Shown piece by piece: positions 44,380-64,000 of a DNA stretch of 64,000 nt (positions are counted from its first letter, which is position 1; every line of letters starts with the position of its first letter). The notes beneath the pieces were generated by a model. The model was not told where the DNA came from. It made no database searches and saw nothing but the letters and a program-made list of their open reading frames with translations. The stretch spans positions 124,001 through 188,000 of the forward strand of contig NZ_JAJLQY010000001.1 of NCBI RefSeq assembly GCF_020991275.1. The letters run 5' to 3'. Made by a program: the position numbers and the translations under genes. The stretch comes from Actinocorallia sp. API 0066 (GTDB lineage Bacteria > Actinomycetota > Actinomycetes > Streptosporangiales > Streptosporangiaceae).

Positions 44380-45029
44380 ACGTCGATCTCGAAGAAGGCC
44401 ATCGAGCCCTTCATCCAGACCCTGTACGCCGAGAAGCGCTTGCCGAGCTCGGCGTCCAGGGTCTCCACCCGGTCGTGCAGGTTCTGGAACGACCCGGCCT
44501 TGTTGTAGGAGCGCATCATCCACCGGGTGAGCGGAGGCTGGTCGCGCTGGTCGCCGATGACCGTCGTGCCGAAGATCCGCGCGCCGGGCTCGGCGTAGGG
44601 CAGCAGGTGGTCGAAGACGACGGCCTTGTCCGCCATCGAGCCCGGCAGGCAGTGCAGCACGTTCTGCACGGCGAGCGAGGTGAAGCGCCGGTCGCCGAGG
44701 TCGAGCGGGTGCAGCACGTCGCGGACGAGGGTCTCGGGGGAGTACCGGGCGATCCGCTTCGCGACGGTGGAGAGCACGAGCTCGTTGAGGTCGGCGACGA
44801 CGATGGACGGCCGGGGCGTCGGGAAGGCGCAGCGGTCGAGGAAGTAGCCGCTGCCGGGCCCGAGGTCGAGGTGCCGGTCGCGCACGTTGCGGTCGTAGTG
44901 GTTCAGCATGACCCGCCGGGAGCAGCGCCACGCGACGGGGCACACGATGCCGAGCGCGATCGGGTCGTAGATGGCGAGGACGGGTCGGGTGTACATCTCG
45001 GCGTCGCCGCTGAGCGCGGGCTGGGTCAT
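44376..45029 (-). CDS. Class I SAM-dependent methyltransferase (NRPS cluster)
   Basis: A 217-residue methyltransferase with SAM-binding motif HLDLGPGSGYFLDR and acidic IVVADLNELVL, then LAVQNVLHCLPGS and PYAEPGARIFGTTVIGD. Members of this group are seen in actinomycete natural-product clusters. It lies 21 bases after the FAD monooxygenase gene, so both are one operon facing away from the NRPS genes. It could N- or O-methylate the aryl unit or the finished peptide; the target cannot be told from sequence. Confidence 0.88.
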   Translation of the reverse strand: MTQPALSGDAEMYTRPVLAIYDPIALGIVCPVAWRCSRRVMLNHYDRNVRDRHLDLGPGSGYFLDRCAFPTPRPSIVVADLNELVLSTVAKRIARYSPETLVRDVLHPLDLGDRRFTSLAVQNVLHCLPGSMADKAVVFDHLLPYAEPGARIFGTTVIGDQRDQPPLTRWMMRSYNKAGSFQNLHDRVETLDAELGKRFSAYRVWMKGSMAFFEIDV

Positions 45030-49300: not shown

Positions 49301-50216
49301 CCTTGAGGTGATCGACCGGAACGGCGACTTCTTCGCGCTCGGCGGCGACTCGTTCAAGGCCGTCAGGGCGGCCCGGCTGCTGGACGACGGGCTCTCGGTC
49401 GTGTCGATCTTCAAGCATCCGACCGTCGCCGCGCTGGCCGCCCACCTGGACGAGGGCGGAGCGCGCGATGACCGCTTCCTACACCTGCTCTCTCCGACCG
49501 CCGACGCGCCGCTCACCCTGGTGTGCGTCCCTTACGGCGGAGGCAACGCCGTCGCCTACCAGCCGCTCGCCGACGCGCTGGGCACGTCCGCCGCGTTGTG
49601 GGCGGTGGACCTGCCGGGCCACGACCTCTCCGACGCCCGGCCGCTCGCCGGGATCGAGGAGGCCATGCCCGCCTGCGCCGCCGAGGTCAGGGAGCGGATC
49701 ACCGGGCCCGTCGCGCTCTACGGCCAGTGCGCGGGCACCGCGGCGACCCTGCTGCTCGGCCGGGCGCTGGAGGACCTCGGGGTCGAGGTCACCGCGACGT
49801 TCATGGGCGCGGCGATCCCCGACCCCGACCCGGAGGCGGCCTGGAGGCTGCTGACCGAAAGCGACCAGGACGACCTGCACGCCCACATGCGCCGGCTCGG
49901 CGGCTTCGACGGCGCGCTCGCCGACGACGACGTCACCGCGATCCTCCGGGTCGTCAGGCACGACCTCACCGAGATGGTCGCGCTCTACCGCAAGGAGGCC
50001 GGGACGCCGCCCGTGACGCTCACAGGGCCCGTCCACTGCCTTGTCGGCGACGACGACCCGGCGACCGAGGGCTACCCGGAGAGGTACGCCGACTGGGGCC
50101 GGTACGGGGCGGGCGCCAGCCTCTCGGTGATCGCCGGGGGCGGCCACTACTTCTGCAAGCACCGGCCGGGCGAGGTCGCCGAGGTCGTCACCCGGCTGTT
50201 GGGGGGAGCACGATGA
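46314..50216 (+). CDS. NRPS, one module with release domain: C-A-PCP-TE
   Basis: A 1300-residue synthetase. The C domain (about 38-470) has HHITSDQWSMG at 171. The A domain (about 500-965) has YVIYTSGSTGAPKG (near 620), SFDMSVYEFLG, GGDWVPVTL, and NGKVDRRAL. The PCP (about 985-1050) carries its phosphopantetheine Ser in LGGDSFKAV. The TE (about 1065-1300) has GQCAG at the nucleophile elbow, so Cys replaces the usual Ser, and a late His in GGGHYF. My hand alignment to GrsA gives pocket residues near D-M-Y-N-I-G-L-I-H-K, related to the Cys-type DLYN group but not identical. It is the terminal module by its TE. ATG start, 4-base overlap with the next gene. Confidence 0.93.
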   Translation: MSEVKVERIARLSPERQALLARLRRDGRRVARRADGGPQPLSHAQRRLWFVNEMGEGGTAFSAPVTYRVRGRIDADVLDRALRFLIGRHPSLRTVFPEHDGEPVQVTGEVPEQAVRRVRLGHLPPEAREAAAWAELRAEVATPFDLGQGPPLRTVLVTLADDDHFLLLNIHHITSDQWSMGILARELEAVYTALGEGRAPELPPLPIDYADYALWQRDRLTGAAERELLAYWERRLDGMVELDLPADRQRPPVPSYRGAEDVVWLPPELVTGLRRVAAETKASPFLVLLAAFAALLSRYTGEDDIAVGTTAAGRDAPEADGLIGFFVNTLVLRTDTGGDPTFRELVGRVGKGVLADQAHAELPFDRLVEHLRPSRDPGRPPLASILFQQDNTPAAALSLPGLDVALVDDFDTGTAKYDLLASVRVRDEGVRLHVQYSLDLFEPATIRRFLTAFEALAEAAVADPDTPVRALPVLPPDEAALILDHWNDTAVEFPDVCLHELFDRQPRDAVALVAGGERFTFGELDERSDRLAAHLGAAPGTLVALTLPPGPDYLVAVLAVLKSGAAFVPIDPAYPESRIEYILADSGVAVVVTAEDVAASASVPPSRPSVAVSPEDRCYVIYTSGSTGAPKGVVLRHRGVVNNLFDLNVGFGVGPGDSVLALSSPSFDMSVYEFLGVPGAGGTVVLPEPELARDPAHWAELVTEHGITVWNSAPALLKLFLDQVEGAVEDPPASLRLAILGGDWVPVTLPDRLRALAPGLEFVVLGGATEASIHSIVYPVGEVDPAWASIPYGRPMANQTAYILDAHGEPVPVGVPGELHLGGIGVGLGYLGRPELTAEKFVKWRGKRLYRTGDRARWRPDGVIELLGRIDFMVKVNGVRIEPGEVEAVLRSHPAVAEAVVVAKNDAAGDRQLVGYLVADSAVDPEEVRAHARGVLPQGMVPSRLVVLDALPLSPNGKVDRRALTDRVDDRARAVHSPPDGPTETRVARAWGSVLGLEVIDRNGDFFALGGDSFKAVRAARLLDDGLSVVSIFKHPTVAALAAHLDEGGARDDRFLHLLSPTADAPLTLVCVPYGGGNAVAYQPLADALGTSAALWAVDLPGHDLSDARPLAGIEEAMPACAAEVRERITGPVALYGQCAGTAATLLLGRALEDLGVEVTATFMGAAIPDPDPEAAWRLLTESDQDDLHAHMRRLGGFDGALADDDVTAILRVVRHDLTEMVALYRKEAGTPPVTLTGPVHCLVGDDDPATEGYPERYADWGRYGAGASLSVIAGGGHYFCKHRPGEVAEVVTRLLGGAR

Positions 50217-53200
50217 AACAGGCGTTGGCGCGGTGGCAGAGCATGTCGCCGCAGGAGCGGGCGGCGCTCCAGGCGGCGGCGGGCGCGGGCGTCGATCCCG
50301 GCCCGGTGCCCGGCGGCGGCTCGGGTGAGGCGTCGGCGACGCAGGGGCAGATCTGGTTCCTTGACAGGCTTTCGGATGATGCCGCTTACGTCGTTCCGTT
50401 CGCGTTCCGGCTGCGGGGGCCGCTTGACGTCGCGGCCTTGGACGCGGCGTTGGCGGCCGTCGTTGAGCGGCATGAGGTGCTGCGGTCCCGGCTCGTGCAC
50501 GGTGACGGCGGGCTGCGGCAGGAGCCGGGGCCCGGCCCCGGACCGCTGGTAGCCGAAGACGTGGCTGACGAGGAGGAAGCCTGGCGCCGGGCCCGCGCGC
50601 TCGCCGCCGAGCGGTTCGACCTGGCGTCCGGGCCCGTGGTGCGGACCCGGCTGCTCCGGCTCGCCCCTGACGACAGCGTGCTCGTGTGGATCGCCCACCA
50701 CGCCGTCGCGGACGGCTGGTCGGCCGGGATCCTCCTGGCCGAACTCGCCGCGCTCTCCTCGGGACGGGCCCTGGAGCCGCTCCAGCTCCAGTACGCGGAC
50801 TTCGGGGCCTGGCAGCGGACCCGGCCCACCGACAAGGCCCTCGCGTTCTGGAGGGAGCACCTGGGGGACGCGCCGCCCGCCGCCGTCCCGTCCCGGCGGG
50901 CCCGTCCGGCGACGCAGAGCTTCCGTGGCGACTGCGTGGAGTTCGCCGTCCCGGCCGGGCTCGCCGAGTTCGCGGCGGCGCGCGGCACCACGCCCTTTGT
51001 GGTGCTGCTGGCCGCGCTGCACGTGCTCGTCGCCCGGTACGGCGGCGAGGACGACGCGGTGCTCGGCATGAGCCTGTCGGGCCGGACGAGGCCGGAGGCG
51101 GAACCGCTCATCGGCCCGCTCGCCACGACGCTGCCGCTGCGCATCGACGGCTCGGGCGACCCGACCGTCGCGGAGCTGCTCGCCGCCGTCTCGGCCCGGG
51201 TGCTGGACGGGCTCGCGCACCAGGAGATCCCGTTCGGCGAGCTGGTGCGCGGGCTCGGCAGGTCCCGCGATCCGGGCCGCAACCCGCTCTACCAGGTGCT
51301 CTTTGTGATGGGCGGGCTCGGCGACCCGCCGCGCGAGCTCGCGCCAGGGCTCGCGGTGGAGGTGCGCGGCCTGCCCAACGGCACGGCCCGGCTCGACCTC
51401 CAGCTGAACGTGGACGCGACACCGGGCGGGTTCGAGGCACGGCTCGACTACGCGACCGAGCTGTTCGACAGGGCCTTCGCCGAAAGGCTCGTCGCGGGCT
51501 ACACCGCGCTGCTGCGCGGCTTCCTGGCCGATCCGGACGCGCCCGTCAGCGCGCTCAGCCTCCTCGGGCCGGACGAACGCGACGCCGTCCTCACCCGCTG
51601 GACGGACCTTCCCGATATCCCCGCGCCTGACGGGTTCCTTCCGCTGTTCGCCGCGAGCGTCGCCTCCTGGCCCGGCCGGATCGCGCTCTCAGACGACGAC
51701 GGCGGCGACCTCACCTATCGGGAGCTGGACGAGCGATCGGACGCCGTCGCAAGGGCGATCCTGGCGCGGCACGCCGGGGGCGGTGTCGTCGCCGTCGCGG
51801 CCCCGCACACCGCCGACCAGCTCGCCGGGCTCCTCGGGGTGCTCAAGGCCGGGTCGGTCTACCTGCCGCTCGACCCCGAGCTCCCAGGCGAACGCCGTGA
51901 CTTCGTGCTCGCCGACAGCGGCGCGGAACTCGTGCTGCACGCCGGCGCCCTGCCCGGCGGGCTGCGCTTCGCCGACCTCGCCGACCTCGGTGATCCCGAA
52001 GCACCACTGCCCCCTACGCCCGGCCCGCATGATCCGGCCTATCTGATGTACACCTCGGGCTCCACCGGACGTCCCAAGGGCGTGCTCGTCAGGCACGGCG
52101 CGCTCGGCAACTTCCTCGCCGCGATGTCCGGCCTGCTCCGCCCGGACGACGCGGTGCCCGCCCTCACCAGCCCGACCTTCGACATCTCCCTGGACGAGCT
52201 GCTGCTACCGCTCGTCGTGGGCGCCAGAACCGTCGTGGTGCCCAGGGCCGTCGCACGGGACGGGGCCGCGCTGCTCCGGCTCGTCGAGAAGGAGGGCGTC
52301 ACCGTGCTGCACGGCACGCCCGCGACGTTCCGGCTCCTCGTGGACGCCGGATGGGACGGGGGCGGCGTCCGGGCGGCGCTGTGCGGCGGCGAGGCGCTGC
52401 CCGCGCGGCTGGCGGCCGAACTGACGGCCAGGGCCGGGGAGGTGTGGAACCTGTTCGGCCCGACCGAGGCGACGGTGTGGGCGCTCACCGCGAGGGTGGA
52501 CGGCTCCGGCGCACCGCCTATCGGCACACCCCTGCCCAACATGACGGCGCTCGCCCTGGACGCCGCCCTACGCCCGGTGCCTCCGGACGCGTTGGGCGAG
52601 CTCTACCTGGCGGGCGCAGGGCTCGCCGACGGCTACCACGGCCGTCCCGAGCTGACGGCCGAACGCTTCATCACCGGCCCCGGCGGGCTCCGCCTGTACC
52701 GGACGGGCGACCTCGTCAGGTACGACGACCAGGGCGTGTTCTGGTACCACGGCCGGGTAGACGACCAGGTCAAACTGCGCGGCTTCCGGATCGAACTGGG
52801 CGAGATCGAGGCGACCCTGCTGCGCCACCCTGACGTCGTGGAGTGCGCCGTCGTCGTCCACGAGCGGAACGAGGACGACCGCAGGCTCGTCGCCTACTTC
52901 CGGGGCGCGGCCGACCCCCGGGACCTCACCGTGGCCCTACGCGCCGCGCTGCCCCCGCACATGGTGCCCGCGCTGCTCGTCGCGGTGGACGCGCTGCCAC
53001 GTACCACCGCGGGCAAAACGGACCGGCGGGCGCTCGCCGCGCGGGCGCTGCCCGACGTCGCGGACGGCGCCGACCACACGCCGCCGCGCACTCCGGTCGA
53101 GAAGTGGCTGGCCGCGCAGTGGGCGGACCTGCTGGGCCGTGGCCCGATCGGCGCGCACGACGACTTCTTCGCGCTCGGCGGCCACTCGCTGCTGGCCGTC

Positions 53201-53398
53201 CGGGTGCTCGGGCAGATCGCCGACCTCTACGGCGTCGAGCTGTCCCTTGAGGTCTTCTTCGCGCGGCCTACCGTCGCCGCGCTCGCCGCCCGCGTCGCCG
53301 CCGCCGAGCCCGCCGCCGCCGACGACCTCCTCGCCCGCGTCGAGGAGCTGACCGACGAGGAAGTCGCCCGCCTGCTGGGCGGAGAGGAGACACCATGA
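50213..53398 (+). CDS. NRPS, one module: C-A-PCP
   Basis: A 1061-residue synthetase. The C domain (about 40-460) has HHAVADGWSAG near 162. The A domain (about 480-960) has YLMYTSGSTGRPKG (near 610), TFDISLDELLLPL, LFGPTEATVWAL and TAGKTDRRAL. The PCP has LGGHSLLAVR (Ser near 990), and a C-terminal helix (about 1035-1061) may be a docking end. By hand the A-pocket reads about D-I-D-H-L-G-L-V-W-K, with no assignment I trust; Asp235 is present, so an alpha-amino acid is expected. It overlaps the genes on both sides by ATGA. Confidence 0.92.
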   Translation: MKQALARWQSMSPQERAALQAAAGAGVDPGPVPGGGSGEASATQGQIWFLDRLSDDAAYVVPFAFRLRGPLDVAALDAALAAVVERHEVLRSRLVHGDGGLRQEPGPGPGPLVAEDVADEEEAWRRARALAAERFDLASGPVVRTRLLRLAPDDSVLVWIAHHAVADGWSAGILLAELAALSSGRALEPLQLQYADFGAWQRTRPTDKALAFWREHLGDAPPAAVPSRRARPATQSFRGDCVEFAVPAGLAEFAAARGTTPFVVLLAALHVLVARYGGEDDAVLGMSLSGRTRPEAEPLIGPLATTLPLRIDGSGDPTVAELLAAVSARVLDGLAHQEIPFGELVRGLGRSRDPGRNPLYQVLFVMGGLGDPPRELAPGLAVEVRGLPNGTARLDLQLNVDATPGGFEARLDYATELFDRAFAERLVAGYTALLRGFLADPDAPVSALSLLGPDERDAVLTRWTDLPDIPAPDGFLPLFAASVASWPGRIALSDDDGGDLTYRELDERSDAVARAILARHAGGGVVAVAAPHTADQLAGLLGVLKAGSVYLPLDPELPGERRDFVLADSGAELVLHAGALPGGLRFADLADLGDPEAPLPPTPGPHDPAYLMYTSGSTGRPKGVLVRHGALGNFLAAMSGLLRPDDAVPALTSPTFDISLDELLLPLVVGARTVVVPRAVARDGAALLRLVEKEGVTVLHGTPATFRLLVDAGWDGGGVRAALCGGEALPARLAAELTARAGEVWNLFGPTEATVWALTARVDGSGAPPIGTPLPNMTALALDAALRPVPPDALGELYLAGAGLADGYHGRPELTAERFITGPGGLRLYRTGDLVRYDDQGVFWYHGRVDDQVKLRGFRIELGEIEATLLRHPDVVECAVVVHERNEDDRRLVAYFRGAADPRDLTVALRAALPPHMVPALLVAVDALPRTTAGKTDRRALAARALPDVADGADHTPPRTPVEKWLAAQWADLLGRGPIGAHDDFFALGGHSLLAVRVLGQIADLYGVELSLEVFFARPTVAALAARVAAAEPAAADDLLARVEELTDEEVARLLGGEETP

Positions 53399-56300
53399 CG
53401 GAGCTGCGGACCACACCCGGCGTCCCCGACACCGGCCGCCCGGCCGTGGTCAGCCGGACCGAGACCCTCACCCACGCCGAACTCGACGCGCGGGTGGACA
53501 AGCTCGCCCACGACCTCGCAAGGCGGATCACCCCGGGGCAGTGGATAGCCGTCGACGGTACGCCGAGCGTGGCGGCCGTCGTCGCGACGCTCGCGGTGCT
53601 GCGGCTCGGCGCGATCCCGGTGCCGCGCGACCTCGACCGCGTCGCCGAGTTCACGCCCCTGCCCGAGGAGGCGGCGGCCGGAGAAGGCTGGGACGACCTC
53701 GCCGCCCGGATCCCGCCGGACGCGCGCGGCGCGTGGGCGGCCCGCTCCGCGCCGCCCGCCTGGACCGCCTTCCTGACGGCGGGCGCCGAGCTGCACGTCG
53801 CCGACTCCGCCGCGCTCGCCACGCCCGCCCGGCTGCGCGACTGGCTGCTCGGCAGGCGGATCACGCACGCCGTCGTGGACGGCCCCCTGGACGGCGTGCA
53901 CTGGCCCGCGCACGTCACCGCGCCCGAGCTGATCGTGCCGCGCACCGAGGACCCCGACCGGTTCGAGCCGTTCCCGCTCACCGACACCCAGCAGGCGTAC
54001 TGGATCGGCCGTGGCGACGCGGTGGAGCTGGGTGGCGTCGGCTGTCACGGCTACTGGGAGTGGGAGGGCGACGGGCTTGACGTCCCAAGGTTCACCGCCG
54101 CCTGGCGTGACGTCGTGGACAGGCACGACGCGCTCCGTACCGTCATCCTCCCGGACGGCACCCAACGCGTTCTGAAGGATCCGCCCGCATACGAGATCCC
54201 TGTCTTGGATCTGCGGGAATTGCCCGATGAGGAGGCCGCCGCCCGTGCGGAGGCGCTGCGGGAGGAGCTGGCGCACCGGATCATCCCGGCCGACCGGTTC
54301 CCGCTGTGGGACGTCCGCGTCACCCTGCTCCCGCACGGCAGGGTCAGGCTGCACCTCGGCCTCGACCTGCTGATCATCGACGCGTGGAGCTACTTCCAGA
54401 TCCTCGTGCCCGACCTCGTCGCCAGGTACGCCGACCCCGGACGGGAGCTGCCGCCGCTCAGCCTGCGCTTCCGCACCTACGCGCTGGAGATGGAGGAGTG
54501 GCGGCGGACCTCGGCGGAGTACGCTGCGGCCCGCGCCTACTGGCTCGACCGGATCGACGACCTTCCGCCCGCCCCGCAACTGCCCAGGGCGGCCGGGCCG
54601 CTTCCGGAGCAGCCCCGGTTCACCCGCCGCGAGTTCACGCAGCCGCCCGACCGCTGGTCGGTGTTCAAGGCGCGCGCCGCCGCGCTGTCGGTGACGCCGT
54701 CCGGGCTGCTGCTCGCCGCTTTCGCCGAGGTGCTGCGGACGTGGAGCGCCGACGAGGCGCTGACGATCAACGTGCCGCTGTTCGACAGGGCGCCGGTGCA
54801 CCCCGACGTCGAGCGGGTGATCGGCGACTTCACCACAACGTCGCTGCTCGCCGTCACCGAGACCGGCGGCGCCTTCGCCGACCGGGCCAGGGCGGTGCAG
54901 CGGCGGCTGTGGGCCGACCTGGAGCACCGGCACTTCAGCGGCGTCCAGGTGATGCGTGAGCTCGCGACCCGGCAGGGCGTCGCGTCGCGCGCCGCGTTCC
55001 CGATCGTCGCGACGATCCTGCTGGGCCAGCCGCCTAGGCACTTCCACACGGCGCTCGGCGAGGCCATCCACACCAGCACCCAGACGCCGCAGGTGACGCT
55101 CGACATGCAGGTCGCCGAGGTGGACGGGGCGCTGCGGCTGTCGTGGGACTCGGTGGACGAGGTGTTCCCGCCCGGCCTGCTCGCCGACATGTTCGGCGCC
55201 TTCACCGGGCTCCTCGACCTTCTGGTGGACGACGGGTCGGCACTGGCTCGGGAGGTTTTTGATCTTGTGCCTTCGGCGCAGGTGGCGCTCGTGCGTGAGG
55301 TGAACTCGACGGCGGGCCCGCATCCTGACTGGCTGCTGCACGCGCCCGTCGCCGCGTATGCCGCCGCTCAGCCTGACGCCGTCGCGGTGGTCAGCGGGGA
55401 CGTCAGGCTCTCCTACGCGGAGCTGGACGGGCGCGTCAACCGGGTCGGGCGGGTGCTGCGGGAGACGGGCGCCGAACCGGGGCGGCTCGTGGCGGTCGTC
55501 ATGCGCAAGGGCTGGGAGCAGATCGTCGCCGCGCACGGGGTGCTCGCGTCCGGCGCCGCCTACCTGCCGATCGACCCGGCGGTGCCCGCCGAGCGGCTGC
55601 GGCACCTGCTGGCGGACGGGGAGGTGTCGGTCGTGCTTACGCAGTCCGTCCTGTACGACGGGCTCGCCTGGCCGCCCGGCGTGCGGGTGCTGTGCGTGGA
55701 CGTGGACTTCGAGGACGTTGACCCGTCGCCGCTTACGCCTGTGCAGGGCCCGTCCGACCTTGCGTACGTCATCTACACGTCCGGCTCCACCGGTGTGCCC
55801 AAAGGCGTGATGGTGGAGCACCGGGGGGCGGCCAACACGATCGCCGACGTGAACGCCAGGTTCGGCATCGGGCCTGGCGACTCCTGCCTCGCCGTCTCCG
55901 ACCTGCACTTCGACCTGTCCGTCTACGACGTGTTCGGCATGATCGCGGCGGGCGGCACCGTCGTCGTCCCGGAGCACTCCGCCAACCCCGACCCCGAGCG
56001 CTGGGCCGAGCTGCTGACGGCCGAGCGCGTGACGTTCTGGAACTCCGTCCCGGCGCTGCTCGAACTCCTCGTCGGCCAGCTGGAGGGCACCCCGGACGGG
56101 CTGCCCGCGCTGCGCACGGTGATCCTCGCGGGCGACTGGATCCCGGTGGACCTGCCCGGACGCCTGCGCGCGCTGGCCCCCGACGTCAGGGTGATCGCCT
56201 CAGGCGGCCCCACCGAGACCTGCGTCTGGTCCGTCATCAACCCTCTCGACGCCCCGGTCGACCCGTCCCTACCGAGCATCCCCTACGGCCGCCCCATGAC

Positions 56301-57123
56301 GAACCAGCGCTACCACGTCGTGGACTCGCGCGGCCGAACCCGCCCCGTCTGGGTCCCCGGCGAGATGCACGTGGCCAGCGAGGTCGGCCTCGCCCGAGGC
56401 TACTGGCGCGACCCCGAACGAACCGCCGCGAAGTTCGTCCCCCTCCCCGGCCTCGAACCCCGCGCCTACGCCACCGGCGACCTGGGCCGCCTCCTCCCCG
56501 ACGGCTCCCTCGAAATCCTCGGCCGAACCGACTTCCAGGTGAAGCTCCAGGGCCACCGCATCGAACTGGGCGAAATCGAGTCCGCCCTCACCACCCACCC
56601 CTCGGTCGCCCGAGCCGTCGTTCTCGCTGCCGGTCAGCGCCTCATCGCCTTCGTCACCGGCGAGAACCCCGACCCCGAGGCGCTGCGCACCCACCTGTCC
56701 GACCACCTACCCGCCCACATGATCCCGGCGACCATCGGTGTGCTCGACGCGCTGCCGTTGACCCGCAACGGCAAGGTGGACCGTCTCGCCCTCGCCGACC
56801 TGGCCGCCGCCGCCGGGCCCGCGCGGGACCCGGGCGGGCCGCCCCAGGGGCCGGTCGAGGAGGTCGTCGCGCTGCTGTGGGGCGAGTTCCTCGGGATCGA
56901 CGGGATCGGCAGGACCGACCACTTCTTCGGGCTCGGCGGGAACTCGCTCGTCGCGACCCGCACCGTCACCCGGCTGCGCGAGCTGTTCGGCGTTGAACTC
57001 CCGCTCCGTGTGGTGTTCGCGCGGCCGACCGTCGCGGACGTCGCCGCCGCGCTGGTCGCCGACCCCGCCGACGCGGCCCGCGTGCACGCGATGTGCGAGG
57101 TCCTGCGTGGTCTGGAGGACTGA
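53395..57123 (+). CDS. NRPS with heterocyclisation: remnant A - Cy - A - PCP
   Basis: A 1242-residue synthetase. Residues 1-185 look like the N-terminal part of an A domain (TLTHAELDARVDKLAHDLAR and VAAVVATLAVLRLGAIPVPR) cut off before its core motifs. A Cy domain follows (about 190-640), beginning PLTDTQQAYWIGRG, with the diagnostic DxxxxDxxS in DLLIIDAWSYF. A complete A domain (about 650-1120) has YVIYTSGSTGVPKG, LHFDLSVYDVFG, AGDWIPVDL and GGPTETCVWS. The PCP Ser is in LGGNSLVAT (about 1182). The pocket reads about D-L-Y-N-I-A-S-V-W-K, close to Cys-activating A domains; Ser or Thr are possible. It would form a thiazoline or oxazoline. Followed by two terminators. Confidence 0.93.
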   Translation: MTELRTTPGVPDTGRPAVVSRTETLTHAELDARVDKLAHDLARRITPGQWIAVDGTPSVAAVVATLAVLRLGAIPVPRDLDRVAEFTPLPEEAAAGEGWDDLAARIPPDARGAWAARSAPPAWTAFLTAGAELHVADSAALATPARLRDWLLGRRITHAVVDGPLDGVHWPAHVTAPELIVPRTEDPDRFEPFPLTDTQQAYWIGRGDAVELGGVGCHGYWEWEGDGLDVPRFTAAWRDVVDRHDALRTVILPDGTQRVLKDPPAYEIPVLDLRELPDEEAAARAEALREELAHRIIPADRFPLWDVRVTLLPHGRVRLHLGLDLLIIDAWSYFQILVPDLVARYADPGRELPPLSLRFRTYALEMEEWRRTSAEYAAARAYWLDRIDDLPPAPQLPRAAGPLPEQPRFTRREFTQPPDRWSVFKARAAALSVTPSGLLLAAFAEVLRTWSADEALTINVPLFDRAPVHPDVERVIGDFTTTSLLAVTETGGAFADRARAVQRRLWADLEHRHFSGVQVMRELATRQGVASRAAFPIVATILLGQPPRHFHTALGEAIHTSTQTPQVTLDMQVAEVDGALRLSWDSVDEVFPPGLLADMFGAFTGLLDLLVDDGSALAREVFDLVPSAQVALVREVNSTAGPHPDWLLHAPVAAYAAAQPDAVAVVSGDVRLSYAELDGRVNRVGRVLRETGAEPGRLVAVVMRKGWEQIVAAHGVLASGAAYLPIDPAVPAERLRHLLADGEVSVVLTQSVLYDGLAWPPGVRVLCVDVDFEDVDPSPLTPVQGPSDLAYVIYTSGSTGVPKGVMVEHRGAANTIADVNARFGIGPGDSCLAVSDLHFDLSVYDVFGMIAAGGTVVVPEHSANPDPERWAELLTAERVTFWNSVPALLELLVGQLEGTPDGLPALRTVILAGDWIPVDLPGRLRALAPDVRVIASGGPTETCVWSVINPLDAPVDPSLPSIPYGRPMTNQRYHVVDSRGRTRPVWVPGEMHVASEVGLARGYWRDPERTAAKFVPLPGLEPRAYATGDLGRLLPDGSLEILGRTDFQVKLQGHRIELGEIESALTTHPSVARAVVLAAGQRLIAFVTGENPDPEALRTHLSDHLPAHMIPATIGVLDALPLTRNGKVDRLALADLAAAAGPARDPGGPPQGPVEEVVALLWGEFLGIDGIGRTDHFFGLGGNSLVATRTVTRLRELFGVELPLRVVFARPTVADVAAALVADPADAARVHAMCEVLRGLED

Positions 57124-57197: not shown

Positions 57198-57225
57198 ACG
57201 GCCCGGCGGACCGGGCCGTTTTTTT
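57198..57225. terminator. Second terminator between convergent NRPS operons
   Basis: A 9-bp stem ACGGCCCGG/CCGGGCCGT with loop CGGA is followed by seven T on +. It also lies 10 bases beyond the minus-strand NRPS stop, so it may serve both operons. Confidence 0.85.
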
Positions 57226-57234
57226 GGGGTGGGT

Positions 57235-60200
57235 TTAAAGATCGCGGAGGTGGGTGAGGAAGGAGGTGGCGAGAGTTTGGGCCTGGGGTGGGTTGTTGTT
57301 GGTGGTGAGGTGGAGGCGGAGATGGTCGGGGTCCAGGACGGCGCGGATGTCCAGGGTGGCGTAGGGGCTGGTGGAGATGACGGCGGAGGGGGCGGTCGGG
57401 GCGTCGGCGGGGGTGGTCTGGAGGGTGAGGAGGAGGGTTTCGGGGCCGCCTCGGAAGAGCTCGGTGATGTGGGCGAAGTTGCCGGTGACGTCGGCCAGGT
57501 GCGGGGGGCGGGAGGAGCGGCGCAGCAGGATCGTGGCGCGGGGGGCGGCCGTGTGCAGGGCGGCGGCCAGGTGTTCGGGGAGGCGGGGGCCTGCGGCGGC
57601 GCGTAGGCGGGTGAACGAGGGGAGGTCGAGGTCGGCGGTCAGGTGGGTGAGGCCGTTGTAGTGGCCGGGTTCCGGGCCGCGCGAGGTGCGCGGTGAGGGC
57701 TCGGGACGGGAGGAGGCGACGTGCTCGCGGAAGGTGAACGACGGTGGGGGCCTCAGCGTGTCGGGGTCCTCGTAGTAGGCGGCAAGATCGGGGAGGACGA
57801 CGTGATGCATGCTTTCGGGATCGATGACGAGGGGCTGGACGGCGAGCTGGACGTGCGCGCCGCCGTCCGGGAGAAGGCTGAGGGTGAACCGGTGCGGCCG
57901 GGCGCCGGAGCGGGAGGCCGCCCGGATCGCGGCGAGCTCACGGGCGGCGGCCTCGGCGTCCGCGTCCCGCAGGTCGCGGAGGGTGAAGTGGGCGCCCTCC
58001 GGCGCGACGGCCTGGGTGCCGTCCGGGTGGACGGCGGTGCGCAGCGCGTCGTGCCGGGCCACGACAGCCCGCCAGGCGGCGGCGAGGCGGTGCTCGTCCA
58101 CCCAGTCGAGCGGCCACTCGTAGACGTCGCGCGCCGGCTGCTGGAAGCCGCTCGCCGCCCACATCTCGCGCTGCGCGGCGGTCAGCGGGAACGGGGCGTG
58201 CCGGAGCGCCGGGTCACCGGACGGCCGGGCCGGGTCGGCGGCCAGGAGCGCGGCGAGCCCGGCGACGGTCGGCCTGGCGAACAGGTCGGGCATGCCGATC
58301 TCGCCGGGGAACCGGGCGCGGACGGCGGCGAGCAGCCGGGTCGCGCGCAGCGAGTCGCCGCCGAGGTGGTGGAAGTCGTCGTCCAGGCCGACGCCCTCGA
58401 CCTCCAGGACGTCCTCCCAGATCCGCACGAGCGCACGTTCCGAGGGCGTCTGCGGCGCGCGATAAGGCACCTCGAGTTCTGGCCGTCCGGCCGACGGCGC
58501 GGGCAGCGCCGCCCTGTCGATCTTGCCGTTGGCGGTGGTGGGCAGCGCCAGCACCACGTAGGCGGCGGGCAGCATGTAGGGCGGCAGCACCCGGGCGAGC
58601 GCCGCGCGCAGGTCGGGCACCCGGGCGGGCCGGGCGGGGTCGGGCTCCACGTAGGCGACGAGCCGTGGTTCGCCCTCGCGGTCCTCGCGCGCGAGCACCG
58701 CGCACTGCCGGACCCCGTCCTGCCCGGCCAGCACGCTCTCGATCTCGCCGAGGTGCACCCGGTAGCCGCGGATCTTGGTCTCGCTGTCGGCCCGCCCGAC
58801 GACCTCGATCAGCCCCTCGGGGGTGTGCCGGGCCAGGTCGCCCGTCCGGTAGAGCACGGGGTACGGGTCGTCCGGCAGCGGGTTCGGCAGGAAGCGCGCG
58901 GCGTTCTCGTCGGGCCGGTTCAGGTAGCCGAGCGAGAGGCTCCGGCCGGAGACGTGCAGCTCGCCGATCTCGCCGGGCGGCACCGGCCGCAGCTCGTCGT
59001 CCAGGATGTAGGTGCGCACGTTCGGGACGGGCCCGCCGATCGGGGGGCGGCGGCGCGCCCGCTCCGCGTCGGAGAGCCCGGCCGCCGTCGCGGTCAGGTC
59101 GCAGGTGGCCACGACGTTGGCCTCGGACGACCCGTACACGTTGAGCACGGTGAACGGAAGCCGGGCGGGCGGCCACGAACGCACCCGCTCGCCCGCTATC
59201 CGCATCGAACGGAGCGCCGTGCCTTCGGGCCACTCCAGCGTCCACAGGCGCTCGGCCATGGCCGTCATCTGGAGGGTGTGCGTGACGCGCTCGGCCACCA
59301 GCCAGTCCCGCAGCAGCTCGGGGGAGGCGGCCGTCTCCTCGTCCGGGATGACGACGCAGCCGCCCGCCGCGAGCACGGGGAAGAAGTCGACCTCGACCAG
59401 GCCCGCGCCGGGCGAGCACAGCCAGGTGCCGCGCGCGTCGGGGCCGATGCCGCACTGGGCGCGCAGCGCGTGCACCGTGTTGCGGAACGGCCCGTGCCGC
59501 AGCGCGACCGCCTTCGGCTTCCCGGTCGAGCCGGACGTGTAGGCGATGTGGCTGACGGACTCGTCGGTGATCTCCCCGCGCGGGTCGACCGGGGCGCGGC
59601 CGCGCCACCCGGCGTCGGGCTCGGCCGGGACGAGCGGGACGCCGTCCGGCAGGAGGGGGGCGAGGCCGGAGGTGGTCACGACGGCCGTCGCCGCCGAGTC
59701 CGCGACCATAAAGGCGAGCCGCTCGGCCGGGTAGCGCGGGTCGAGGAGCACCACGGCGGCGCCCGCCTTGAACACCGCGAGTTGGGCGACGACGCTGGCC
59801 GCGCTCCGCTCCAGCAGCACCCCCACCTTCGCGCCGGGCCCGGCGCCCAGCCCGGCCAGGTGCGCGGCGAGCCGGTCGGCGTCGGCGTCCAGCGCGCCGA
59901 AGGTCGTCGGGACGCCCTGGTCCAGCACGGCGACGGCGTCCGGGCGCTCCCGCGCGATCCGCCCGATCAGCTCGTGCGCGTGCCCGTCCGGGACGGGCAG
60001 GTCCGCGAAGGCCACGGCGGCGCGGCCGGGCGGGGCGGCGGCCCGCGCGTCGGCGGCCCGCGCCACGAAGTTCTTGATCATCAGGTATCCGTTCTCGGTG
60101 CCGATACTCTCCGGGTGGAACTGGACCGACTCGACCGGCAGCGCACGGTGCCGCAGGCCCATCACATAGCCGTCGTCGCGCGACCTCGCGGTGATCTGGA

Positions 60201-60621
60201 GCTCGGCCGGGACGGTCTTGTCGGGGACGATGAGCGAGTGGTAGCGGGTCGCGCGGAAATCGGCGTCGAGCCCGGCGAGCAGGCCCGTGCCGTCGTGGCT
60301 GATCCGGCTGGACTTGCCGTGCACGAGGTGCGTGGCGGGCACGACCTCGCCGCCGAACGCGAGGCCGACGGCCTGGTGGCCGAGGCAGACGCCGAGGACG
60401 GGGAGCCGTCCGGCGAACTCCCGGATCAGTGGCACGTACCCCGCCTCCGCCGGATGGCCCGGGCCGGGCCCGAGCAGCAGCGCGTCCGGCCGCAGCGACC
60501 CTACGAGGCCCGGCTCCGCCACGTCGCTGCGCACCACGACGGGTTCCGCCCCGGCCGAGGACAGGTAGTGGCACAGCGTGTGCACAAAACTGTCGAAGGC
60601 GTCGACGACGACGACCCGCAT
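57235..60621 (-). CDS. Glutamine amidotransferase (TrpG/PabA type) fused to NRPS A-PCP and degenerate Cy-like domain
   Basis: A 1128-residue fusion. Residues 1-195 are a class I glutaminase: nucleophile Cys79 in LGVCLGHQAVG, His169 and Glu171 in VQFHPES, and GPGPGHP. An A domain (about 220-720) follows with IAYTSGSTGKPKA, LNVYGSSEANVV and NGKIDRAALP. By hand its position 235 is Gly, not Asp (about G-L-V-L-R-A-V-V-V-K), as expected for a substrate without an alpha-amino group and reminiscent of anthranilate-activating A domains. The PCP Ser is in HLGGDSLRATR (near 757). The last ~320 residues resemble a shortened Cy domain with QPLVIDPES where DxxxxDxxS is expected. ATG 60621 overlaps the TrpE-like stop (TGATG). 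It likely makes and loads anthranilate. Confidence 0.9.
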   Translation of the reverse strand: MRVVVVDAFDSFVHTLCHYLSSAGAEPVVVRSDVAEPGLVGSLRPDALLLGPGPGHPAEAGYVPLIREFAGRLPVLGVCLGHQAVGLAFGGEVVPATHLVHGKSSRISHDGTGLLAGLDADFRATRYHSLIVPDKTVPAELQITARSRDDGYVMGLRHRALPVESVQFHPESIGTENGYLMIKNFVARAADARAAAPPGRAAVAFADLPVPDGHAHELIGRIARERPDAVAVLDQGVPTTFGALDADADRLAAHLAGLGAGPGAKVGVLLERSAASVVAQLAVFKAGAAVVLLDPRYPAERLAFMVADSAATAVVTTSGLAPLLPDGVPLVPAEPDAGWRGRAPVDPRGEITDESVSHIAYTSGSTGKPKAVALRHGPFRNTVHALRAQCGIGPDARGTWLCSPGAGLVEVDFFPVLAAGGCVVIPDEETAASPELLRDWLVAERVTHTLQMTAMAERLWTLEWPEGTALRSMRIAGERVRSWPPARLPFTVLNVYGSSEANVVATCDLTATAAGLSDAERARRRPPIGGPVPNVRTYILDDELRPVPPGEIGELHVSGRSLSLGYLNRPDENAARFLPNPLPDDPYPVLYRTGDLARHTPEGLIEVVGRADSETKIRGYRVHLGEIESVLAGQDGVRQCAVLAREDREGEPRLVAYVEPDPARPARVPDLRAALARVLPPYMLPAAYVVLALPTTANGKIDRAALPAPSAGRPELEVPYRAPQTPSERALVRIWEDVLEVEGVGLDDDFHHLGGDSLRATRLLAAVRARFPGEIGMPDLFARPTVAGLAALLAADPARPSGDPALRHAPFPLTAAQREMWAASGFQQPARDVYEWPLDWVDEHRLAAAWRAVVARHDALRTAVHPDGTQAVAPEGAHFTLRDLRDADAEAAARELAAIRAASRSGARPHRFTLSLLPDGGAHVQLAVQPLVIDPESMHHVVLPDLAAYYEDPDTLRPPPSFTFREHVASSRPEPSPRTSRGPEPGHYNGLTHLTADLDLPSFTRLRAAAGPRLPEHLAAALHTAAPRATILLRRSSRPPHLADVTGNFAHITELFRGGPETLLLTLQTTPADAPTAPSAVISTSPYATLDIRAVLDPDHLRLHLTTNNNPPQAQTLATSFLTHLRDL

Positions 60622-62651
60622 CACGGCTCCACCCCCGTGACGGCCCAGTGCGCGGCGCCCGCCTTGGCCAGCGTCTCCGCCCACTCACGGGCCGGGTCGG
60701 AGTCGGCGACGATCCCGGCCGCCGCGCGGGTCCGGTACACGCCGTCGCGGTACACCAGGGCCCGGATGCACAGCGCCAGGTTGAGGTACCCGCCGAACCC
60801 GACGAGCCCGAGCGCCCCCGCGTACATGCCGCGTCGGCTCTCCTCGACCTCCTCGATGATCTCCATCGCGCGGATCTTCGGCGCGCCCGTCATGGTGCCC
60901 GCGGGAAAGAGGGCCGCGATGACGTCATAGGAGTCGGCTTCAGGGCGGACGTCGCCGACGACCGTCGAGACCAGGTGCAGGACCTTCCCGAACCGTTCGA
61001 CCGCGAGCAGTTCGGGCACGTCGAGCGTGTCGGTGACGCAGATCCGGCTGATGTCGTTGCGGCACAGGTCCACGAGCATCACGTGCTCGGCGATCTCCTT
61101 CTCGTCGGTGCTGAGCCGGGTGACGGAGGCCGCCATGTCGTCGCCCACGGGCAGTGTCCCGGCGAGCGGCCGCATCGTCGCGCGCCCGTCCACGACCCTG
61201 ACGAACAGCTCGGGGCTGGCGCCGACCAGGGTGCTCCCGGCCGAGGGGGCGAGGAACATGTACGGCGCCGCCGTCCGCTCCCGCAGCCGCGCGTAGACCG
61301 CGACCGGTTCGGCGTCACTCCGGAACGCCGTCTCGTGGCCGACGACCACCTGGTAGATGTCCCCGACCGCGATATGCCCCAGACACTTGGCCACCTTGGC
61401 CACATACGCCTCCCGTGGCGTATCACCCTCCCCCTCCACACCGCCCTGCGCGCCGGACCCGGCCGACGGCACGAACCCCGCGCCCGCAAGACTCGCGATC
61501 AGCCCGAGCACACCCCCCGCCCACCCCTCCCCACCCTCATCATGGGTGTTGGGTGTGGTGTGGGTGTTGGGCCAGGTGTTGGAGGTGTGGAGTAGGAGGT
61601 CGGCTTCGTCGCCGGTGATGGGGATGCGTAGCACGCCTTGGTAGAGCACGAGGTGTACGTCGGGCACGTTGGGATCGCCGTTGATGAGGTAGGGGAGGCG
61701 CTCGATGTACCGGGCGGTGTCATAACCGAAGTGCGCGACAAAACCGAAGTCGAACGCGGACGGCCCCGCGTCTACCTCAAAATGTGCCTCCAGCGCCCGT
61801 AGCAGCTCCCAGAGAGCGGGCCCCTCCACCGGCGTGAAACGGGCGACGAGCGCCCGAACTTGCCCGCACAGCGGCTCCGCCCCCGCGACGTCCACCCGCC
61901 CCGCCGTCACCGAAACGGTCAGCACAGGCCCGAACGCCACAACATGCTGTCCCCGATCCGCCCCCGGCCCCCCGGCCGACTCCAGCAGGCACACCCCCTC
62001 CGCCCCGTACCTCCCGACAAGCACCCGATAAGCCGCAAGCGGCTCCGGCACCAACACCCGATACCGCTCCGTCCGCACCCTCACCACCCCACCCCCCGCC
62101 CCGCGCCTGCCCTGTACACCGCTTACACCGCTCACGTCGCTCACGCTGTGCGCGTCGCTCACGTCGCTCACGTCGCTCACGCTGCTCGCGCTGTGCGCGC
62201 CGCTCACGCTGCTCGCGCTGTGCGCGCCGCTCATGCTGCTCGCGCTGTGCGCGCCGCTCACGTCGCTCACGCTGTGTGCGTCGCTCACGCTGTGCGCGCT
62301 GCTCGTGATGGGCATGCCGCTCGTGCCGGTCCCGCCGTGGGTGTCACTCGCGCGTTCGGTGTCACTCGCGCCGTGGGTGTCACGTGTACTGTTCGTGCCG
62401 TTTGCGCCGTGTGCGTTGTCTGTGCCGTGTGCGCCGTTCATGCCACTCACGCCGCTTCCGTCCTGGGTGCCGTAGGCGCCGCTCGTGCTGACGCTGCTCG
62501 TGCTGACGCCGCTCGTGCCGGTTCCGCCGTGGGTGTCGTTCGCGCCGGGCATGTTGCTTGTGCCGGGTGTGCCGGGTGTGCTGGATGCACCGGGTATGTC
62601 GGGTGTGCTAGGTGTGTTGGGTGTGGTGTGGGGGTTGTTTTTGTTGGTCAT
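60621..62651 (-). CDS. TrpE/PabB-type chorismate-utilising enzyme (anthranilate synthase component I-like) with repetitive N-terminal extension
   Basis: A 676-residue protein. Residues from about 190 to the end form the chorismate-binding fold, with EKEIAEHVMLVDLCRNDISR, FGKVLHLVSTVVGDV, FPAGTMTGAPKIRAMEIIEE and AAAGIVADSDPAREWAETLA. The TMTGAPK form (Thr, as in TrpE) favours anthranilate or aminodeoxyisochorismate over PabB-type aminodeoxychorismate. Its glutaminase partner is the N-terminal domain of the next gene. Residues 1-187 are low-complexity Ser/Gly/Thr/His/Asn with tandem repeats and have no counterpart in TrpE. The ATG at 62651 overlaps the upstream stop by 4 bases, which supports this start. 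A smaller Asn/Thr/His-rich insertion lies near residues 345-365. Confidence 0.88.
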   Translation of the reverse strand: MTNKNNPHTTPNTPSTPDIPGASSTPGTPGTSNMPGANDTHGGTGTSGVSTSSVSTSGAYGTQDGSGVSGMNGAHGTDNAHGANGTNSTRDTHGASDTERASDTHGGTGTSGMPITSSAHSVSDAHSVSDVSGAHSASSMSGAHSASSVSGAHSASSVSDVSDVSDAHSVSDVSGVSGVQGRRGAGGGVVRVRTERYRVLVPEPLAAYRVLVGRYGAEGVCLLESAGGPGADRGQHVVAFGPVLTVSVTAGRVDVAGAEPLCGQVRALVARFTPVEGPALWELLRALEAHFEVDAGPSAFDFGFVAHFGYDTARYIERLPYLINGDPNVPDVHLVLYQGVLRIPITGDEADLLLHTSNTWPNTHTTPNTHDEGGEGWAGGVLGLIASLAGAGFVPSAGSGAQGGVEGEGDTPREAYVAKVAKCLGHIAVGDIYQVVVGHETAFRSDAEPVAVYARLRERTAAPYMFLAPSAGSTLVGASPELFVRVVDGRATMRPLAGTLPVGDDMAASVTRLSTDEKEIAEHVMLVDLCRNDISRICVTDTLDVPELLAVERFGKVLHLVSTVVGDVRPEADSYDVIAALFPAGTMTGAPKIRAMEIIEEVEESRRGMYAGALGLVGFGGYLNLALCIRALVYRDGVYRTRAAAGIVADSDPAREWAETLAKAGAAHWAVTGVEP
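62127..62285 (-). repeat. In-frame tandem repeats encoding Ser/Ala/His/Asp units
   Basis: Three 27-bp tandem copies (62178-62258) encode SGAHSASS(M/V). They are flanked by two copies of a 33-bp unit encoding SDAHSVSDVSG (residues 123-133 and 165-175). A further pair encodes DTHGGTGTSG at residues 39-48 and 103-112, outside these bounds. All keep the reading frame. Confidence 0.85.
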
Positions 62652-64000
62652 GAGGTCACCGTTTGGCGGGGGGCGGCGGCTCGGGCGGCTAGGTCGGCGG
62701 GGTCGGGGGCTACGCGGGTGTCGAGGACTCGGGCGGCTTTCCAGCTGACGAAGGCGCCGGTGGACGTCACCGGGTCCAGTTCGGGTTCGACCTCCAGGTG
62801 GACGGGGGTGGCGGGGCCGACCAGGGTGCGGAGGCGGTCCAGGGTGCCTGGGGTGGGGAGCTTTGTCAGGTCCAGGCGGACTGTGACCTTGGTGGGGCTG
62901 ATTTCGACCTGGTAGCCGTAGCAGCCTTGGACGTTGTGGAGGATGGCGGCCTCCAGTTCGGTGGGGTGGAGCGTGGCGGCGCCGATCCGGAGGCGGTCGG
63001 CGGCCCGGCCGATGACGGTGGCGACGCGGCCGGGTGGGCCCGAGCCGGGGTCGGGGTCGATGCGGACCAGGTCGCCGGTGCGGTAGCGGATCAGGGGTTT
63101 GATGCCGTCTCCGAGCATCGTGAGGACGAGTTCGCCTTCGGCGCCCGAGCCGTCCTCGTCCTGGATAAGGGCGCCCGTCGACGGGTCCACGAGTTCGAAG
63201 ACGTAGTTCGGTTCGGCGAGGCGGAGGCGGCCGTCAGGGGCGCCGGTGGCGATGCACAGGGCCTCCTGCGAGCCGTACAGGATGGGCGCGACGGTCGCGT
63301 CCGGCCACAGTGAGGAGACGTTGGCCGCGAACTCCGGCGTGCAGATCTCGCCGAGCACGAGGAACAGCTTGAGCGGCAGCTCCGCAAGCGAGAACCCGTG
63401 GTAGCGGGCCGCCTTGGCCAGGCTGAGGCACAGCGCGGGCGCACAGACCACGACCTCGACCCCGAGGTCCCGGATGAGCCGCAGCGCCTTGGCGAACCCG
63501 ACGCGCGGCGACTCCGGCCAGAGCTTCACGTGGCACAGGTCGAGTTCCTCGGTGACGGCGGTGAACACGTCGCCGAACGCGTACAGCTCGGACGGCCCCA
63601 TCAGCGCGACGACGGGCCGCCGAGCACCGAACCGGGCCTCGACCTGCCGCCGGAACGCGGCGGCGACCGACCGGTTGCTGGACACGATGTCGGCGTGCCC
63701 GCGCGGGCAGGGCGTCGGCGGCCCGGTCGTGCCGGTCGTCTCGTAGAAGATCCGCGCGTCGGACGGCGGCCCGGAGAGGATGCCGTAGCCCGCGTCCCGC
63801 AGGTCGGCCTTGGTGGTGAACGGCAGTTCCGCCAGCGGCACCGAGGCGAGGTCGAGCCCGCGCAGCCGCTCCCGGTAGAACGGCGACCCGTCAACCACCC
63901 TGGCCAGGACGGCGCGCAGCCGCGTCTCCCGCCAGGCGGCCAACTCGCCGTCGGTGAGCGTACGGGCCTCGTAAGCGGCGTGCAGCGCCGCGTGCGCGTC
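62648..64000 (-). CDS. PaaK-like adenylating enzyme (phenylacetate-CoA ligase/AMP-ligase family), 5' end outside window
   Basis: 451 codons are in the window and the frame is open to the right edge, so the start lies beyond. The family layout is clear: an N-terminal half with SPFYRERLRGLDLASVPLAE, P-loop YETTGTTGPPTP, ILYGSQEAL, and GIKPLIRYRTGDLVRIDPD, and a C-terminal ACT-like subdomain. These enzymes make acyl-CoA or acyl-thioesters from aryl or arylacetic acids by adenylation. Here it heads the operon with the TrpE-like enzyme and the glutaminase-NRPS fusion (ATGA overlap with the next gene). It might activate a second aryl acid or transfer to a carrier protein; substrate unknown. Confidence 0.88.
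   Translation of the reverse strand, partial: DAHAALHAAYEARTLTDGELAAWRETRLRAVLARVVDGSPFYRERLRGLDLASVPLAELPFTTKADLRDAGYGILSGPPSDARIFYETTGTTGPPTPCPRGHADIVSSNRSVAAAFRRQVEARFGARRPVVALMGPSELYAFGDVFTAVTEELDLCHVKLWPESPRVGFAKALRLIRDLGVEVVVCAPALCLSLAKAARYHGFSLAELPLKLFLVLGEICTPEFAANVSSLWPDATVAPILYGSQEALCIATGAPDGRLRLAEPNYVFELVDPSTGALIQDEDGSGAEGELVLTMLGDGIKPLIRYRTGDLVRIDPDPGSGPPGRVATVIGRAADRLRIGAATLHPTELEAAILHNVQGCYGYQVEISPTKVTVRLDLTKLPTPGTLDRLRTLVGPATPVHLEVEPELDPVTSTGAFVSWKAARVLDTRVAPDPADLAARAAAPRQTVTS

What the first reader, a model, noticed from the sequence alone, without database searches (positions are those of the whole stretch)
57235..60621. Glutaminase-NRPS fusion: TrpG-type amidotransferase joined to A-PCP
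One protein carries a complete class I glutaminase triad (Cys79, His169, Glu171) followed by an A domain, a PCP and a degenerate Cy-like region. Its start overlaps the stop of a TrpE-like chorismate enzyme. The A domain has Gly where alpha-amino-acid domains have Asp235. Together this suggests that ammonia supply for aminobenzoate synthesis and capture of that aminobenzoate on a carrier protein are built into one polypeptide. I know stand-alone TrpE/TrpG pairs in anthranilate-using clusters, but I do not recognise a TrpG-A-PCP fusion as a described architecture.
Basis: partly seen in the sequence, partly recalled or inferred. Interest (0 to 1): 0.9.

Follow-up and report, generated by a model that had tools for sequence, protein, structure and literature searches.

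The report
Glutaminase fused to NRPS loading module
In one actinobacterium the ammonia-supplying half of a chorismate aminase is fused to the protein that loads the finished aromatic acid onto a peptide assembly line; close relatives make the same parts as two separate proteins, and the acid is more likely benzoxazolinate, known from the antitumour antibiotic C-1027, than a plain aminobenzoate.

Summary
In detail: window 57235-60621 (minus strand) is one 1128-codon frame with a TrpG-type glutaminase (Cys79, His169, Glu171), an A domain with Gly at position 235, a carrier domain and a degenerate Cy domain. Its ATG overlaps the TGA of a TrpE-like gene. The aminobenzoate reading is only partly right. 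FMN enzyme, acyl-AMP ligase, TrpE and glutaminase match sgcG, ligase, sgcD and AS II of the real C-1027 cluster, in the same order (60, 59, 53 and 67% identity): the benzoxazolinate cassette, whose SgcD makes ADIC, not anthranilate. The SHMT has the TAEG..RYH signature of benzobactin-type enzymes and the next NRPS is closest in the PDB to FmoA3. So the A domain most likely loads benzoxazolinate. Three related clusters share the A pocket (GLVLRAVVV) but encode glutaminase and A-PCP separately; 0 of 14 other cassette glutaminases tested is fused. The fusion looks young and lineage-specific. The joint lies in the window's only pure-GC run of 30 nt or more, so an assembly indel is not excluded, and the FMN enzyme here has lost one of four conserved cysteines. 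New variant of a known kind.

The parts
57235..60621 (-). GATase-A-PCP-Cy* fusion protein, 1128 aa (P0001)
60061..60621 (-). TrpG-type class I glutaminase domain (residues 1-187; Cys79-His169-Glu171)
59971..60060 (-). linker, residues 188-217; holds the fusion joint and the 35-nt pure-GC run at 60015-60049
58501..59970 (-). A domain, residues 218-707; pocket GLVLRAVVV (positions 235-331), no Asp235
58237..58449 (-). peptidyl carrier domain with GGDSL
57238..58224 (-). degenerate Cy domain (Cy*), first Asp of DxxxxD lost, shortened
60621..62651 (-). TrpE-like, SgcD-type chorismate aminase (P0002); core about 60621-62096, N-terminal ~185 codons repetitive
62648..64000 (-). acyl-AMP ligase (PaaK-like, C-1027 type), start at about 64015 outside the window; beyond it FMN enzyme of SgcG type (64012-64719), TEII, P450, SHMT, methyltransferase, BTAD regulator
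53395..57123 (+). P0003: vestigial A domain (53395-53952), Cy, A (DLYNIASVW), PCP; FmoA3-like
50213..53398 (+). P0004: C-A-PCP (start inferred), A pocket DIDHLGLVW
46314..50216 (+). P0005: C-A-PCP-TE, A pocket DMYNIGLIH
45051..46190 (-). FAD-dependent monooxygenase-like gene, kept in relative G1230 (68%)
44376..45029 (-). methyltransferase-like gene, kept in G1230 (65%)
57199..57220 (.). two terminator-like hairpins (0.3 expected) between the convergent genes P0003 and P0001

Best explanation
P0001 is a real but lineage-specific fusion of two adjacent genes of one operon. Its N-terminus is the glutaminase subunit of an SgcD-type (ADIC-forming) chorismate aminase: it hydrolyses glutamine and passes ammonia to the TrpE-like protein made just before it. 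The FMN enzyme then aromatises the aminated product and the acyl-AMP ligase closes the ring, giving benzoxazolinate. The A domain of the same fusion protein adenylates this free acid and loads it on the adjoining PCP. The Cy domain of P0003 condenses it with an alpha-substituted serine made by the dedicated SHMT and cyclises it to an oxazoline; P0004 and P0005 add two residues and P0005's TE releases the product. The C-terminal Cy* of P0001 is a vestige of an older A-PCP-Cy starter. Shown by sequence: domains, motifs, gene order, match to the C-1027 genes, separate genes in relatives. Inferred: every reaction in this organism, the acid loaded, and the product.
For: Domains and motifs. Authentic C-1027 record NZ_CP013739.1: sgcG, ligase, sgcD and AS II in the same order as here, 60, 59, 53 and 67% identical; SgcD scores 440 bits against ours and at most 176 against five TrpE-TrpG fusions of the family. 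Same order at similar identity in six unnamed Streptomyces loci, three of three tested with a neocarzinostatin-family apoprotein. Fused GATase inside the cassette clade (support 100/99). Cassette, PbzD's non-amino-acid A1 and the SHMT class as described in PMC10098953. SHMT motif TAEG..RYH; the genome's other SHMT YAEG..RYY. P0003's best PDB match 6LTA = FmoA3 (994 bits). Same cluster in G1230 with GAT and A-PCP separate; A pocket identical in 4 of 4. 0 of 14 other cassette GATs fused. By eye, no Shine-Dalgarno-like motif before the A part here, unlike G1230 and G1162.
Against: The FMN enzyme here has Thr for the first of four cysteines kept in 18 of 18 relatives and in SgcG, so its [Fe-S] step may be impaired. 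The ligase lacks the Zn tetrad described for XsbC, though C-1027's own ligase lacks it too. XsbC, the benzobactin genes and the ashimide cluster were not compared. P0003's pocket is Cys-like and differs from FmoA3 at two of its three key residues. The joint lies in a GC run where an indel could hide.
Confidence: 0.71

Rival explanations
1. The loaded acid is anthranilate (or a hydroxyanthranilate): TrpE plus the fused glutaminase make anthranilate, and the A domain captures it directly.
For: The TrpE-like partner keeps HLVS and has PLAGT without Lys (the meaning of these motifs is recalled); the FMN enzyme here has lost one of four conserved cysteines, which could leave an earlier product as the end point.
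Against: The partner is closest to SgcD, which makes ADIC and does not release pyruvate (PMC10098953), and SgcD has the same HLVS motif; ligase and FMN enzyme are kept; the A pocket is identical to that of G1230, G1162 and G1167, whose FMN enzymes have all four cysteines.
Confidence: 0.09
2. Glutaminase and A-PCP are two proteins in the living cell; the single frame is an assembly indel in the GC run at the joint.
For: The joint contains the only pure-GC run of 30 nt or more in the window; in 14 of 14 other cassette loci the glutaminase stops 7-18 residues after its matched end; a GTG stands in frame just after the run.
Against: The stretch between conserved ends is 87 nt here and 41 nt in G1230 (counted by hand), so it is remodelled, not a one-base copy of the relatives' layout; A/T bases on both sides of the run avoid third codon positions of the one frame; no Shine-Dalgarno-like motif is seen before the A part.
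Confidence: 0.12
3. The A domain loads the ring-open enolpyruvoyl-anthranilate (or ADIC), and ring closure happens on the carrier.
For: Arg at pocket position 299 in 4 of 4 A domains could bind a second carboxylate.
Against: In X. szentirmaii xsbC was needed for ring closure and deletion of the A-T gene xsbB had no effect (PMC10098953); a C-1027-type ligase is present here.
Confidence: 0.06

Closest known systems
Benzoxazolinate cassette of C-1027 (sgc, plasmid SGLP1)
   Same: sgcG, ligase, sgcD and AS II in the same order, 60, 59, 53 and 67% identical
   Different: there AS II is a free protein and the acid goes to an enediyne; here it is fused to an NRPS loading module; FMN enzyme lacks one of four cysteines
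Benzobactin clusters (pbz, xvb; from PMC10098953 and PMC9177418)
   Same: benzoxazolinate starter, A1 domain without the amino-acid Asp, Cy-type condensation domain, PbzB-type SHMT
   Different: there PbzG (AS II) is a separate gene whose deletion changed nothing; here it is part of the loading protein, and two more C-A-PCP modules and a TE follow (sequences not compared)
JBIR-34/35 and tambromycin type clusters (FmoA3, FmoH)
   Same: FmoA3-like Cy-A-PCP, FmoH-type SHMT, AlkZ-like gene; relative G698 has an A-PCP-Cy-methyltransferase starter homologous to P0001
   Different: starter is a chorismate-derived acid; Cy* of P0001 and A* of P0003 are decayed
Ashimide cluster (asm) of Streptomyces sp. 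NA03103
   Same: benzoxazolinate and an SHMT (AsmD), as cited in PMC10098953
   Different: not compared: paper not held, sequence not fetched; whether it has the fusion is unknown

Membership tests
TrpG/PabA class I glutaminase | Cys-His-Glu triad and TrpG family match | tested here: met
   C79, H169, E171; PF00117 and PDB TrpG/PabA matches
TrpG/PabA class I glutaminase | chorismate-enzyme partner next to it | tested here: met
   TrpE-like gene overlaps by TGATG
Benzoxazolinate cassette | SgcD, SgcG and acyl-AMP ligase homologues together | tested here: met
   53, 60 and 59% identical to the C-1027 genes, same order
Benzoxazolinate cassette | full cysteine set of the FMN enzyme ([Fe-S] binding by these is inferred) | tested here: not met
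   three of four; all four in 18 of 18 relatives and in SgcG
Benzoxazolinate cassette | Zn tetrad Cys-His-Cys-Cys in the ligase (XsbC, NatL2) | tested here: not met
   absent here; incomplete also in C-1027's own ligase; complete in G676, G688, G744 and G1162, so not general
Benzoxazolinate cassette | makes benzoxazolinate | not testable with these tools
   needs enzymology or metabolite data
NRPS loading module for a non-amino acid | no Asp235; A3, A10 and PCP Ser motifs present | tested here: met
Functional Cy domain (Cy* of P0001) | DxxxxD motif | tested here: not met
   QPLVID here, HRAVAD in G1162
PbzB/FmoH/AsmD-type SHMT | TAEG..RYH in place of YAEG..RYY | tested here: met
   TAEGYPGKRYH; other SHMT of the genome YAEGYPGRRYY
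FmoA3-type alpha-methylserine A domain | A688, N730, S760 of FmoA3 (PMC11253843) | tested here: inconclusive
   N kept, A to L and S to A, by hand alignment
Ashimide cluster | gene-by-gene match to asm | not tested
   paper not held, sequence not fetched

The most novel reading that the evidence does not exclude
The fusion makes P0001 the hub of a metabolon: the glutaminase holds the SgcD-type aminase, and through it the FMN enzyme and ligase, against the loading module, so that the aromatic acid is built and captured beside one carrier protein and little free acid escapes. It would be the first NRPS loading protein known to me that also carries the nitrogen-supply step of its own starter.
Probability: 0.13. 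Interest if true: 0.72.

Novelty: new variant of a known kind. Interest (0 to 1): 0.45.

Why it matters
It gives a testable loading code (GLVLRAVVV) for an aryl acid that is probably benzoxazolinate, a rare DNA- and protein-binding group, and four actinobacterial clusters to mine (this one, G1230, G1167, G1162). It also catches a gene fusion early: one lineage has joined an ammonia-supply enzyme to an assembly-line loader while its relatives keep both as neighbouring genes, so the benefit of tethering can be measured against a natural control.

Tried and rejected
Anthranilate as load: kept as a rival; its odds went down and those of the best explanation up a little, which found the authentic C-1027 genes. 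Cys-thiazoline reading from P0003's pocket alone: set aside because benzobactin's A2 also falls in the cysteine clade while using 2-hydroxymethylserine (PMC10098953). PhzE-type enzyme: rejected, the PhzE match in the PDB is weak (62 bits; that 3r74 is PhzE is recalled) and the glutaminase is joined to A-PCP, not to TrpE. Long-frame glutaminase hits in the family as further NRPS fusions: 5 of the long frames listed were fetched, all 5 are TrpG+TrpE fusions; the other long frames were not looked at. Plasmid records with the whole protein: 126 matched at 1e-60, 0 with one place covering 80% of the query, 15 of 126 listed; glutaminase part 76 records, 25 listed; A domain 79 records, 25 listed, none of the 79 at 60% identity or more. 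Genome-contig scan: 13 loci, none spans both halves (six peptide patterns only). AlphaFold model of the whole protein on 9 sequences: glutaminase mostly confident, linker 196-215 and most of 797-993 below 50, mean pLDDT 58; not used for Cy* or interfaces. Rfam: no match in 40000-64000.
Full report
OBSERVATION. The minus strand of 57235-60621 reads as one protein of 1128 residues. Pfam finds GATase (4-187), AMP-binding (223-567), its C-terminal part (626-700) and a carrier domain (730-793). The glutaminase triad Cys79, His169, Glu171, the A3 and A10 motifs and the carrier motif are present. The TrpE-like gene upstream ends in TGA and its last base starts the ATG of P0001, TGATG. Position 235 is Gly where the A domains of P0003, P0004 and P0005 have Asp. 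The C-terminal 328 residues match the Cy domain of P0003 (38% over 223 residues), but the first Asp of DxxxxD is Gln and the domain is shortened.

SURROUNDINGS. On the plus strand lie P0005 (C-A-PCP-TE), P0004 (C-A-PCP) and P0003 (Cy-A-PCP with an N-terminal remnant). Upstream of TrpE on the minus strand lie a PaaK-like acyl-AMP ligase (P0007, overlapping TrpE's start) and, beyond the window, an FMN-reductase-like gene, then thioesterase, P450, SHMT, methyltransferase and a BTAD-type regulator. P0003's best PDB match is 6LTA at 994 bits, next best BmdB at 697; 6LTA is FmoA3, which activates alpha-methyl-L-serine for JBIR-34/35 (PMC11253843, passages read).

WHICH ACID. PMC10098953 (parts 1-4 of 5 of the text read) defines a three-gene benzoxazolinate cassette: an anthranilate synthase component I homologue such as SgcD, which makes ADIC, an FMN- and [Fe-S]-dependent dehydrogenase such as SgcG, and an acyl-AMP ligase such as XsbC. 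The authentic C-1027 plasmid record (NZ_CP013739.1) holds sgcG, ligase, sgcD and AS II in our gene order. Our FMN enzyme, ligase, TrpE and glutaminase are 60, 59, 53 and 67% identical to them; SgcD gives 440 bits with ours and 130-176 bits with five TrpE-TrpG fusions from the own family. The paper also describes an SHMT class with TAEG..RYH in place of YAEG..RYY. The cluster SHMT here has TAEGYPGKRYH, as do those of G1230, G698 and G854 (4 of 4 looked at), while the genome's second SHMT has YAEGYPGRRYY.

SURVEY. With the ligase as probe, 14 of 394 genomes of the class match at 1e-25 (13 besides this one; 8 of the 13 fetched); four (G676, G688, G744, G811) have TrpE, a separate TrpG, the FMN gene and the ligase within the fetched stretch. 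Of 295 Streptomyces genomes 20 match at 1e-60; nine loci were fetched anew. Six of these, at 61-64% identity, have FMN gene, ligase, TrpE and glutaminase in our order; three of the six were tested for, and have, a neocarzinostatin-family apoprotein. Of the other three, G981 and G1054 show FMN gene and TrpE, G1031 the ligase only; glutaminases were not sought there by tblastn. Of 341 genomes of the own family 12 match at 1e-60 (11 besides this one; 8 fetched). The fused glutaminase falls in one clade with 14 cassette glutaminases, against 15 ordinary TrpG or TrpG-TrpE sequences, support 100/99 (rows chosen by me; its end branch is long).

RESULTS AGAINST. The FMN enzyme here keeps three of the four cysteines that 18 of 18 relatives have and that SgcG has. 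The ligase lacks the Zn tetrad of XsbC and NatL2; C-1027's own ligase lacks it too, while G676, G688, G744 and G1162 have it. P0003's pocket DLYNIASVW is cysteine-like and differs from FmoA3 at two of the three residues named in PMC11253843; the same pocket occurs in G1230 and G1162, and PbzD's A2 is likewise in the cysteine clade (PMC10098953).

RELATIVES AND ORIGIN. G1230 carries the same cluster: exporter 72-77%, SHMT 70%, P450s 67 and 68%, FAD gene 68%, P0003-, P0004- and P0005-like proteins at 56-72% by domain, cassette, and then a free glutaminase followed by a free A-PCP of 579 residues that overlaps it by ATGA. G1167 (short contig, A domain cut) and G1162 (more distant; FMN gene 7 kb off) also have them separate. 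In 14 of 14 other cassette loci the glutaminase frame stops 7-18 residues after its matched end. Nine pocket residues GLVLRAVVV are identical in P0001, G1230, G1162 and G1167, and differ from the A-PCP-Cy starter of locus G698 (AVMMVTTNV). So the fusion is private to this genome among those examined and the load is probably shared. The full protein found no second fusion in 395 other genomes of the phylum (only 2 candidates scored per genome), in 2 others of the genus or in a genome-contig scan; these searches are samples.

VESTIGES. P0003 starts with 186 residues of broken A domain. Among the loci held its best outside match is the G698 starter A (61 bits over residues 5-171); P0001's A gives the clearest other match to residues 106-160 (41 bits), weaker ones exist. 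G1162 has the same part as a nearly full but degenerate A in front of Cy (A3 region FTAGSTAEP, A10 Lys replaced), 42% identical to ours; G1230 has none. Cy* of P0001 has a counterpart in G1162, also without the first Asp, and none in G1230. P0003's Cy is closer to the Cy of the G698 starter (53%) than to the Cy of two Cy-A-PCP proteins (49%, 47%). I infer that an A-PCP-Cy starter was duplicated, one copy kept A-PCP, the other kept Cy, and both lost parts are fading.

IS THE FUSION REAL. The stretch between the conserved glutaminase end and the conserved A start is 87 nt here and 41 nt in G1230 (counted by hand), so it has been rebuilt rather than shifted by one base. Third positions of the linker are all G or C in the one frame, and by eye no Shine-Dalgarno-like motif stands before the A part, in contrast to G1230 and G1162. 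But 35 nt of pure GC at the joint, the only such run of 30 nt or more in the window, could hide an indel. I put the artefact at about one in eight.

VERDICT. Real (most likely), young, and a new variant of a known kind: a benzoxazolinate-type starter pathway whose ammonia subunit has been fused to the loader. Literature searches whose listings show no description: (open-licence PMC only). The ashimide paper is not held.

Noticed in passing
window 62097-62651: The first ~185 codons of the TrpE-like gene are low-complexity, with 9-, 18-, 27- and 36-bp tandem repeats (62119-62625); its ATG overlaps the ligase stop, so the repeat may be translated. SgcD (493 aa) lacks it.
   Followed up: partly
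L017:2012-2719 (-): FMN enzyme has Thr in place of the first of four cysteines kept in 18 of 18 relatives and in SgcG: possible decay or a changed cluster.
   Followed up: partly
L162:2476-7158 (-) and window 53395-53952: Vestigial A domain in front of Cy, nearly full in G1162, 186 residues here, absent in G1230.
   Followed up: yes
L078-L085 (G676, G688, G744, G811): TrpE-TrpG-FMN enzyme-ligase sets without a matching NRPS in the fetched stretch, some beside TrpB-like and amidohydrolase-like genes (my reading by eye): perhaps an undescribed ADIC-type pathway.
   Followed up: no
L152-L159 (G1166, G1234, G1206, G1165): FMN enzyme and ligase side by side but no TrpE or TrpG match within the 38 kb fetched; amination may be supplied from elsewhere.
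   Followed up: no
L017:8427-9512 (-); L163:11636-13336 (-): AlkZ-like DNA glycosylase next to the cluster here and in G1230 (60% identical); PMC9040887 (passages read) reports such genes in tambromycin and JBIR-34 clusters and suggests genotoxic products.
   Followed up: partly
plasmid records: 24 Pseudomonas plasmid records carry a homologue of the ligase; those listed are at about 40% identity. Not looked into.
   Followed up: no
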